A stretch of DNA of 64,000 nt from Acidovorax sp. 1608163. GTDB lineage: Bacteria > Pseudomonadota > Gammaproteobacteria > Burkholderiales > Burkholderiaceae_C. The stretch is from the NCBI RefSeq assembly GCF_003669015.1, contig NZ_CP033069.1, forward strand, positions 4,474,501 through 4,538,500. Reading direction: 5' to 3'. A program made the position numbers and the translations under genes. The notes beneath the pieces are model-generated. The model made no database searches, was not told where the DNA came from, and worked only from the letters and a program-made list of their open reading frames with translations. Below, piece by piece: positions 58,020 through 59,902 of the stretch. The first letter of the stretch is position 1, and each line of letters opens with the position of its first letter.

Positions 58020-58448
58020 TCAGAAAGGCTTGACCACCACCAACACCACGGCGATCAGCAGCAGCAGCACCGGCGCCTCGTTGAACCAGCGAAACCACCG
58101 ATGGCTGCGGCGGCTGCTGCCATCCGCCAGCTTGCGCAGCAACACAGCGCAGCTGTGGTGGTAACCGATCACCAAGGCCACCACGGTCAACTTGGCGTGC
58201 ATCCAGCCGTTGCCAGGACCCCGCCCGATGCCGTAACCCAGCCACAGCCACAGCCCCAGGGCCAACGCGGGCACCGCCAGCAGGGTGGTAAAGCGCAAAA
58301 GCTTGCGCGCCATCAACAAGAGGCGATCACGCTCGGCGGCCGAGCCGGGCGCCACCATTGCCAAATTGACAAAAATGCGCGGCAGATAGAACAAGCCCGC
58401 AAACCAGCTGGCCACGAACACGATGTGAAAGGCTTTTACCCAGAGCAT
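58020..58448 (-). CDS. hemJ: HemJ-type protoporphyrinogen oxidase
   Basis: A 142-residue integral membrane enzyme thought to oxidise protoporphyrinogen IX to protoporphyrin IX. It has four hydrophobic helices, starts MLWVKAFHIVFVASWFAGLFYLPRIFV (His8 is the probable haem ligand) and has the conserved MHAKLTVVALVIGYHHSC. The neighbouring hemB, two steps back in the same pathway, supports the call over the related CopD proteins. Confidence 0.9.
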   Translation of the reverse strand: MLWVKAFHIVFVASWFAGLFYLPRIFVNLAMVAPGSAAERDRLLLMARKLLRFTTLLAVPALALGLWLWLGYGIGRGPGNGWMHAKLTVVALVIGYHHSCAVLLRKLADGSSRRSHRWFRWFNEAPVLLLLIAVVLVVVKPF

Positions 58449-58590: not shown

Positions 58591-58618
58591 AAAAAAAAGC
58601 CCGGCACATGGCCGGGCT
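58591..58618 (-). terminator. Terminator of the small RNA
   Basis: An 8-bp stem AGCCCGGC/GCCGGGCT (58598-58618) is followed on the minus strand by eight T. It is oriented so that it can end only a transcript coming from the 58.6-58.7 kb region, where no protein gene exists. Confidence 0.92.
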
Positions 58619-58691
58619 GAGAAGCCTTGACTGCGCGTAGCAATCGAAGGCCCCGCTCAGGGAGGAAAAAGCGGGAGGCAGAGGGCTGCCC
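58591..58691 (-). ncRNA. Probable small regulatory RNA with an anti-Shine-Dalgarno loop
   Basis: No protein gene is on the minus strand here, yet a promoter (58699-58727), three hairpins and a terminator follow one another. The hairpins are GGCAG/CTGCC (58677-58690), CCCGCT/AGCGGG (58652-58675) with the loop UUUUCCUCCCUG, and a long stem GCCTT-GATTGC/GCAGTC-AAGGC (58624-58651). The CCUCCC loop could pair with Shine-Dalgarno sequences. The set resembles, from memory, the 'Betaproteobacteria toxic small RNA' family. Function is inferred. Confidence 0.75.
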
Positions 58692-58698
58692 GGGATCA

Positions 58699-58727
58699 AA
58701 TTTATCATTAATGACAAACCGTTACAA
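58699..58727 (-). promoter_or_regulatory. Promoter of the small RNA
   Basis: On the minus strand TTGTAA (58722-58727) and TAAATT (58699-58704) are spaced by exactly 17 bases. The predicted start is near 58691, one base before the first hairpin. The rest of the 401-base gap 58449-58849 holds only the hemB upstream region (58730-58849), where I see no clear promoter. Confidence 0.65.
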
Positions 58728-58834
58728 GCGTATGCAATTAGTTGCATAAATCAGTAGGGTTATTTGTGGCTCCCACCCCCGCCCTCAGGGCCGCGTGGTG
58801 ACAGGCCAGGGCCCCCAGGGCGTTGCCGAGATAG

Positions 58835-59902
<1,068 letters not shown>

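What the first reader, a model, noticed from the sequence alone, without database searches (positions are those of the whole stretch)
58591..58730. Probable small RNA with an anti-Shine-Dalgarno loop between hemJ and hemB
Seen: on the minus strand TTGTAA-17-TAAATT is followed by three hairpins in about 65 bases and a strong terminator with eight T. No open reading frame of that strand needs the terminator. The second hairpin exposes CCUCCC in a loop, complementary to GGGAGG/GGAG Shine-Dalgarno sequences. Known: I recall a family called Betaproteobacteria toxic small RNA with hairpin loops carrying an anti-Shine-Dalgarno sequence, and CCUCC-loop RNAs in alphaproteobacteria. Inferred: this is a translational regulator, perhaps toxic when overproduced. 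The location next to hemJ/hemB is unexplained.
Basis: partly seen in the sequence, partly recalled or inferred. Interest (0 to 1): 0.75.

Follow-up and report, generated by a model that had tools for sequence, protein, structure and literature searches.

The report
anti-hemB small RNA beside hemB
The window holds a copy of a known but unexplained bacterial small RNA, anti-hemB, whose exposed loop can cover ribosome-binding sites, and comparison with relatives suggests that in many of them the cell-envelope stress factor RpoE switches it on.

Summary
On the minus strand (about 58692-58591) a promoter-like TTGTAA-17-TAAATT precedes three hairpins and a terminator ending in eight T; the second hairpin exposes CCUCCC. 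It is a catalogued RNA: Rfam RF02837, anti-hemB (52.7 bits, cut-off 49.5), ncS04 in Burkholderia cenocepacia, where papers report a 105-nt, Hfq-bound transcript without known function. It is not the toxic family RF02278 (25.6 bits, cut-off 50).

The RNA is over cut-off in 133 of 200 genomes of the order, usually divergent from hemB (47 of 61 fetched loci). Its 5' hairpin, outside the Rfam model, covaries.

Not met in my literature searches: many relatives have a sigma-E-type promoter before the RNA (exact pattern in 41 of 200 genomes, 21 families, reversed control 0). The same motif lies upstream of rpoE in 14 of 25 of these genomes, and in 0 of 5 of the window's genus, where the RNA has a sigma-70-like promoter instead.

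Best reading: a trans-acting anti-Shine-Dalgarno RNA, probably envelope-stress controlled in many relatives and rewired in this lineage. No target was found.

The parts
58591..58692 (-). anti-hemB small RNA, predicted transcript of about 102 nt (start inferred about 7 nt after the -10)
   Evidence: Rfam RF02837 on 58591-58678, 52.7 bits; fold z -4.57; the B. cenocepacia transcript is 105 nt (PMC5688073)
58722..58727 (-). -35-like TTGTAA
   Evidence: sequence; same position and letters in 12 of 17 distinct same-genus rows
58699..58704 (-). -10-like TAAATT
   Evidence: sequence; TAAATT or TAGATT at the same place in 17 of 17 distinct same-genus rows
58676..58691 (-). 5' hairpin H0 (GGGCAG-CCCU-CUGCCU), outside the Rfam model, abutting H1
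   Evidence: covariation in 31 relatives (22 distinct): 4 of 6 pairs changed on both sides, 12 cells against 3.4 in shuffles
58652..58675 (-). hairpin H1 (CCCGCUU...GAGCGGG) with the anti-Shine-Dalgarno loop
   Evidence: compensatory stems across the order
58660..58665 (-). CCUCCC, complementary to GGGAGG Shine-Dalgarno sequences
   Evidence: CCUCCCU mean unpaired probability 0.99 over 104 distinct sequences
58624..58651 (-). hairpin H2
   Evidence: a hairpin here in 101 of 104 distinct relatives
58591..58618 (-). intrinsic terminator with eight T
58850..59860 (+). hemB (ALAD, PF00490), divergent neighbour
58020..58448 (-). hemJ (UPF0093, PF03653), downstream on the RNA's strand; incidental
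58702..58717 (.). near-palindrome TTGTCATTAATGATAA overlapping the -10; possible operator
   Evidence: sequence; kept in G326, altered in G341

Best explanation
This is the genome's single copy of the anti-hemB small RNA (Rfam RF02837, ncS04 of Burkholderia cenocepacia): a free-standing RNA of about 100 nt, transcribed divergently from hemB. Shown here: family membership, the four-hairpin architecture with covarying H0 and H1 stems, a strongly conserved CCUCCCUGA loop, and synteny with hemB across the order. Shown by sequence only: many relatives, mostly outside the window's family, have a sigma-E-type promoter (GGAACTT-N16-TCTnA) before the RNA, and the same motif stands before rpoE in many of those genomes; in the window's genus neither has it and the RNA carries a sigma-70-like promoter at the same distance. 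Inferred: the RNA acts in trans, with Hfq, by pairing its exposed CCUCCC loop with GGGAGG-type Shine-Dalgarno sequences and blocking translation; it belonged to the envelope-stress (RpoE) response in ancestors or sister lineages and lost that control in this one.
For: Rfam match over cut-off, the only non-tRNA match in the window. Spread: over cut-off in 233 of 299 family, 31 of 47 genus and 133 of 200 order genomes, 0 of 14 controls. hemB divergent in 47 of 61 fetched RNA loci, none in another orientation, including 20 of 20 from the genus search and 10 of 10 from the order search; seen from hemB, 54 of 80 named hemB loci carry the RNA on the opposite strand (49 by strict core, 5 more by Rfam). 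Structure; lower energy than the opposite strand in 100 of 111. Promoter: sigma-E score 10 or more in 14 of 15 loci of one deep clade, at nearly one position (0.8% of shuffles); exact pattern in 41 of 200 genomes of 21 families, reversed control 0; same motif upstream of rpoE in 14 of 25 of those genomes against 0.8% in shuffles. Hfq binding and a 105-nt transcript for ncS04 (PMC5688073 and PMC4603805, passages).
Against: No target was found. An 11-nt complement placed before a start codon occurs in 12 of 47 genus genomes (reversed control 3 places) and not in the own genome; the reading frames behind the 12 sites differ and most look like chance frames. The 8-nt complement is rarer than its reversed control in the own genome (6 against 11 places), and its one site before a long gene (an M48 peptidase) is in 2 of 47 genomes only. 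67 of 200 order genomes lack a match over cut-off; Delftia and Comamonas hemB loci lack one. ncS04 showed no significant change in seven conditions (PMC5688073). Promoter classes: 20 of 102 rows undecided; two loci of the window's family (L005, L008) have the sigma-E type, one deep row (L091) scores sigma-70. A published meningococcal sigma-E -35 differs from GGAACTT (PMC2893595), and the rpoE motif is missing in 11 of 25.
Confidence: 0.65

Rival explanations
1. Cis-acting: the RNA, or its transcription, regulates hemB itself, by overlap with the hemB leader or by interference between the divergent promoters.
For: Synteny with hemB is widespread; in some loci the loop lies only about 81-95 bases from the projected hemB start, so the two promoters would be very close. 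The review PMC6321483 (passage) says hemB was predicted as target of Bc7.
Against: In the window about 150 bases separate the inferred RNA start from the hemB start. In 14 of 61 fetched RNA loci no hemB was found within the fetched 1.5 kb (one of them cut by a contig end), yet core and hairpins persist; in two Hydrogenophaga loci the RNA is about 1.5 kb from hemB. A cis role does not explain a conserved CCUCCC loop.
Confidence: 0.15
2. Leader or attenuator of hemJ: the transcript is a terminated 5' region of the hemJ operon.
For: hemJ lies about 140 bases downstream on the same strand; hemJ found in 61 of 110 RNA loci.
Against: By tblastn with the window's HemJ, 0 of 10 order-level RNA loci and none of the named Burkholderia, Cupriavidus and Pandoraea loci have hemJ nearby, while RNA and terminator persist.
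Confidence: 0.04
3. A functional copy of the Betaproteobacteria toxic RNA (RF02278) type that inhibits growth when abundant.
For: Shared CU-rich unpaired motif; overproduced ncS27 of RF02278 slows growth of B. cenocepacia (PMC5688073).
Against: 25.6 bits against a cut-off of 50; four hairpins, not two; the genome has its own RF02278 match over cut-off.
Confidence: 0.08
4. The functional strand is the plus strand: a hairpin in the hemB leader displaying AGGGAGGA, for example for an RNA-binding protein such as CsrA.
For: The plus strand also folds (z -2.54) and its loop holds GGA motifs.
Against: Promoter-like elements, terminator and T run are on the minus strand; the minus strand folds better in 100 of 111 relatives; ncS04 is a mapped transcript on the strand opposite BCAL0264 (PMC4603805; that this gene is hemB is inferred from the RNA's name).
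Confidence: 0.03

Closest known systems
Rfam RF02837 anti-hemB (ncS04 of Burkholderia cenocepacia)
   Same: Sequence and structure over the whole 81-position model, similar length, CU-rich loop.
   Different: Low-scoring member (52.7 bits; best relatives 66-81); covarying 5' hairpin outside the model; sigma-70-like promoter; no second CCCCUUU stretch in the terminator loop.
Rfam RF02278 Betaproteobacteria toxic small RNA (double-hairpin RNAs ncS03/05/27/62)
   Same: Unpaired CU-rich stretch complementary to ribosome-binding sites, then a terminator.
   Different: Two hairpins, 57-92 nt in B. cenocepacia (PMC5688073); scores only 25.6 bits here (cut-off 50).
MicA and RybB, the sigma-E-dependent small RNAs of enterobacteria
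   Same: In relatives of the window's RNA: a sigma-E-type promoter directly before a short terminated RNA.
   Different: No sequence kinship shown; a loop rather than the 5' end as likely seed (RybB/MicA seed recalled); targets unknown; the window's own copy lacks the sigma-E-type promoter.
CCUCC-loop RNAs of alphaproteobacteria (SorX and kin)
   Same: Idea of a loop complementary to Shine-Dalgarno sequences (recalled).
   Different: SorX model only 22.1 bits against a cut-off of 46.6.

Membership tests
RF02837 anti-hemB | score at or above the curated gathering score | tested here: met
   52.7 against 49.5 bits, E 2e-9
RF02837 anti-hemB | consensus structure: CCUCCCUGA hairpin, middle hairpin, terminator with U run | tested here: met
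RF02837 anti-hemB | divergent neighbour of hemB | tested here: met
   hemB PF00490 at 58850 on +; 47 of 61 fetched loci
RF02837 anti-hemB | transcript of about 105 nt, Hfq-bound | not testable with these tools
   reported for ncS04 in PMC5688073 and PMC4603805 (passages)
RF02278 Betaproteobacteria toxic small RNA | score at or above the gathering score | tested here: not met
   25.6 against 50 bits
RF02278 Betaproteobacteria toxic small RNA | double-hairpin architecture | tested here: not met
   four hairpins
RF02278 Betaproteobacteria toxic small RNA | inhibits growth when introduced into E. coli | not testable with these tools
   no experiment
sigma-E-dependent small RNA (MicA/RybB type) | sigma-E-type promoter, in the window | tested here: not met
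   best score 8 of 12, reached by 41% of shuffles
sigma-E-dependent small RNA (MicA/RybB type) | sigma-E-type promoter, in relatives of the same RNA | tested here: met
   41 of 200 order genomes exact, control 0; rpoE shares the motif in 14 of 25
sigma-E-dependent small RNA (MicA/RybB type) | transcript depends on RpoE | not testable with these tools
   no expression data
sigma-E-dependent small RNA (MicA/RybB type) | represses outer-membrane protein mRNAs | not tested
   no target prediction over gene tables was done
SorX / alphaproteobacterial CCUCC-loop RNAs | score at or above the SorX gathering score | tested here: not met
   22.1 against 46.6 bits
hemJ leader | hemJ downstream wherever the RNA occurs | tested here: not met
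   61 of 110 RNA loci, 0 of 10 order-level loci

The most novel reading that the evidence does not exclude
The anti-hemB RNA is the non-coding, translation-blocking arm of the RpoE envelope-stress response in betaproteobacteria, a counterpart of enterobacterial MicA/RybB that works through one or two anti-Shine-Dalgarno loops; in the window's lineage, where rpoE shows no such autoregulatory motif in the 260 bases examined, the RNA was rewired to a sigma-70-type promoter while keeping start-site geometry, structure and loop.
Probability: 0.5. Interest if true: 0.65.

Novelty: new member of a known kind. Interest (0 to 1): 0.45.

Why it matters
anti-hemB is a widespread small RNA of its order (133 of 200 genomes over cut-off), and the paper passages I saw give it no trigger and no tested target. 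A sigma-E-type promoter before it in 21 families, shared with rpoE itself in many of the same genomes, names a trigger that a single rpoE deletion can test. The window's lineage offers the contrast: same RNA, different promoter class.

Tried and rejected
Targets: an 11-nt complement before start codons in the genus (12 places in 12 of 47 genomes, reversed control 3; the frames behind them were read: 21 to 212 codons, no recurring gene, one plausible start in G326) and an 8-nt complement in the own genome (6 places at 5 sites, reversed control 11). The only long downstream ORF there, an M48 peptidase, is in 2 of 47 genus genomes, so it was dropped as a conserved target. Porins were considered and not tested.

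RNAalifold on the 72-row MAFFT alignment recovered only H1: I judged the other helices misaligned there and used single-sequence folds and a near-gapless alignment of 31 rows for H0 and H1. H2 and terminator covariation was not counted.

Circularity: the segments were picked by a pattern containing CCTCCCTGAGC, and those by a looser one still containing C[CT]TCCC, so loop invariance is partly built in. Five loci found by Rfam without the strict pattern have other stems but the same loop, though the Rfam model favours that loop too; L064 has CCUCCCUUA and was not over cut-off. In one search, one of 118 listed hairpins is an unrelated chance match.

At E <= 0.001, 3 of 14 control genomes also ring for RF02837, so I cite counts over cut-off (0 of 14). 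The loci fetched are best-scoring ones (30, 20 and 10), not random samples; with L001 they make 61. The pattern contains CTCCTCCCTGA, a loop letter that the window and most of its family do not have, so its silence in that family (0 of 5 sampled) says nothing; the sigma-70 class there rests. Promoter classes use thresholds of my own, the tree is a quick one with many open forks, 20 of 102 stayed undecided, and single sigma-70 scores are weak. The 25 genomes were chosen from the 41 (they are related, 15 families), the 5 of the window's genus by hand; rpoE upstream regions were not selected on. A first script for rpoE recognised 22 of 30 genes and found the motif in 12; one search used the match positions and all 30.

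Literature searches bearing on function or a link to RpoE: open-licence library only, listings; passages read in PMC5688073, PMC3521395, PMC6515984, PMC6321483, PMC4603805, PMC7011215, PMC9029176, PMC1804206, PMC2893595. Supplementary files were not read. The original Hfq co-purification paper was not seen; the toxic-RNA paper (PMC3317161) is not held.

Full report
What is there. On the minus strand upstream of hemB the sequence reads TTGTAA (58727-58722), 17 bases, TAAATT (58704-58699), then hairpins H0 (58691-58676), H1 (58675-58652), H2 (58651-58624) and a terminator with eight T ending at 58591. The 110-nt strand folds to -50.7 kcal/mol, z -4.57, with no shuffle of 200 as low; the other strand has z -2.54. 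CCUCCC is in the H1 loop, and among 11 CCTCCC sites in the window it is the only one inside a stem of at least six pairs.

What it is. Rfam's covariance model RF02837, anti-hemB, matches 58591-58678 at 52.7 bits (cut-off 49.5), the only non-tRNA match over cut-off in the 64 kb. Anti-hemB is listed for B. pseudomallei in PMC3521395 (one passage) and is ncS04 in B. cenocepacia: 105 nt, 3' end confirmed by RACE, northern blot, Hfq-bound (as cited there), no significant change in seven conditions (PMC5688073, passages; PMC4603805, passages). PMC6321483 (passages) mentions Bc7, with hemB as predicted target and RybB as homologue; that Bc7 and ncS04 are one RNA is my inference.

Spread and place. 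Over cut-off: 233 of 299 genomes of the GTDB family, 31 of 47 of the genus, 133 of 200 of the order; 0 of 14 control genomes. The own genome has one copy. Of 61 fetched RNA loci (best-scoring ones plus the window's), 47 have hemB divergent within the fetched 1.5 kb, including 20 of 20 from the genus and 10 of 10 from the order search; in 14 no hemB was found. From the other side, 49 of 80 named hemB loci have the strict core, always on the opposite strand, and 5 more match Rfam over cut-off; Delftia, Comamonas, Polynucleobacter and others have none. hemJ was found in 61 of 110 RNA loci and in none of the 10 order-level ones, so the RNA is not a hemJ leader.

Structure under selection. In 104 distinct sequences, single-sequence folds give H0 in 99, H1 in 102 and H2 in 101; the CCUCCCU stretch is unpaired with mean probability 0.99 (segments were chosen by their core). 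H0, absent from the Rfam model, covaries in 31 relatives (22 distinct): 4 of 6 pairs change on both sides (17 of 500 shuffles reach 4), 12 such cells against 3.4 in shuffles (0 of 500 reach it), 96.6% of cells paired; registers slid by 1 to 3 columns reach at most 7 such cells and 71% paired. H1 never varies there but changes across the order in matched fashion, CCCGC/GCGGG, CCUGC/GCAGG, CACGU/GCGUG, around the same CCUCCCU. The RNA's strand folds better than its complement in 100 of 111. In 15 of 117 sequences a CCCCUUU stretch follows in the terminator region: the ten order-search loci, L102 (Sideroxydans), L066, L067 and L070 (Noviherbaspirillum, Paucimonas, Keguizhuia), and L021, of the window's family, which may be chance; in the order loci it is the terminator loop. 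The window lacks it.

Promoters. In 17 distinct same-genus rows the -10 is TAAATT or TAGATT in all and the -35 TTGTAA in 12. In 15 loci of one HemB clade (L100, L102, L103, L106, L107, L135-L144) nearly the same place holds GGAACT-N16/17-TCTnA-like elements, scoring 10 or more of 12 in 14 (L140 scores 9), a level reached by 0.8% of shuffles. The exact pattern GAACT-N16-18-TCT followed by the RNA core occurs in 41 of 200 order genomes, 21 of the 51 family codes, its reversed control in none; of 30 loci fetched, 23 have a hemB match and all 23 are divergent. Two loci of the window's own family code, L005 and L008, also have it (scores 11 and 10). This is the promoter type of enterobacterial sigma-E: -35 GGAACTTTT and -10 GTCAAA for rybB and micA (PMC1804206, passages). 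PMC2893595 (passages) gives GGAACTT for E. coli but a different -35 for meningococci, a caution within the betaproteobacteria. An independent check: RpoE (TIGR02939) is present in all 30 genomes tried; the same exact motif lies within 260 bases upstream of rpoE in 14 of 25 genomes that have the motif at the RNA, and in 0 of 5 of the window's genus; shuffles 0.8%, reversed control 0. In that genus RpoE also scores lower on its family model (254-258 bits against 303-334). On a quick HemB tree the promoter classes cluster: 5 changes among the 82 rows given one of the two classes; counted against all other rows the sigma-E class needs 8 changes and the sigma-70 class 16; 20 of 102 rows are undecided. 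The sigma-E class holds all 15 rows of that clade and rows of Pandoraea, Paraburkholderia, Paucimonas and Keguizhuia; Burkholderia sensu stricto is labelled sigma-70, Cupriavidus undecided, and one other deep row (L091) sigma-70. The counts cannot fix direction; a change to sigma-70 on the way to the window's clade is my reading.

How it works. Shown: identity, structure, conservation, promoter motifs. Inferred: a trans-acting RNA, Hfq-assisted, whose loop pairs with GGGAGG-type ribosome-binding sites. Against: I found no conserved target, and in the own genome AGGGAGGA placed before a start codon is rarer than its reversed control (6 against 11 places). This may mean avoidance, short seeds, or another mechanism. 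A cis role on hemB remains the main rival.

Novelty. The RNA is a new member of a known family. The covariation of the 5' hairpin, the sigma-E-type promoter over many families, its sharing with rpoE and the difference of promoter class did not turn up in the searches named in Tried and rejected (open-licence library, listings and passages).

Noticed in passing
58748-58731 and 58717-58702: Two inverted repeats, TATGCAACTAATTGCATA and TTGTCATTAATGATAA, lie between the RNA and hemB, the second over the RNA's -10; kept in one same-genus genome (G326) and partly in another (G341) of 47: possible operator sites.
   Followed up: partly
L002 (G000:C1:4054816-4054878): A Betaproteobacteria toxic small RNA match over cut-off (RF02278, 65.1 bits) in the same genome outside the window.
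   Followed up: no
L223-L227: RpoE of five genomes of the window's genus scores lower on TIGR02939 (254-258 bits) than in 25 other genomes (303-334), and the gene lacks the GAACT-N16-18-TCT motif within 260 bases upstream.
   Followed up: partly
L037, L046: In two Hydrogenophaga loci the RNA (still before hemJ) lies about 1.5 kb from hemB.
   Followed up: no
G087, G159: Two family genomes show six RF02837 matches each at E <= 0.001; in G087 two of them lie within 300 bases: tandem and dispersed copies.
   Followed up: no
L066, L067, L070, L102, L135-L144: A second CU-rich stretch (CCCCUUU) in the terminator region of these relatives, absent in the window.
   Followed up: partly
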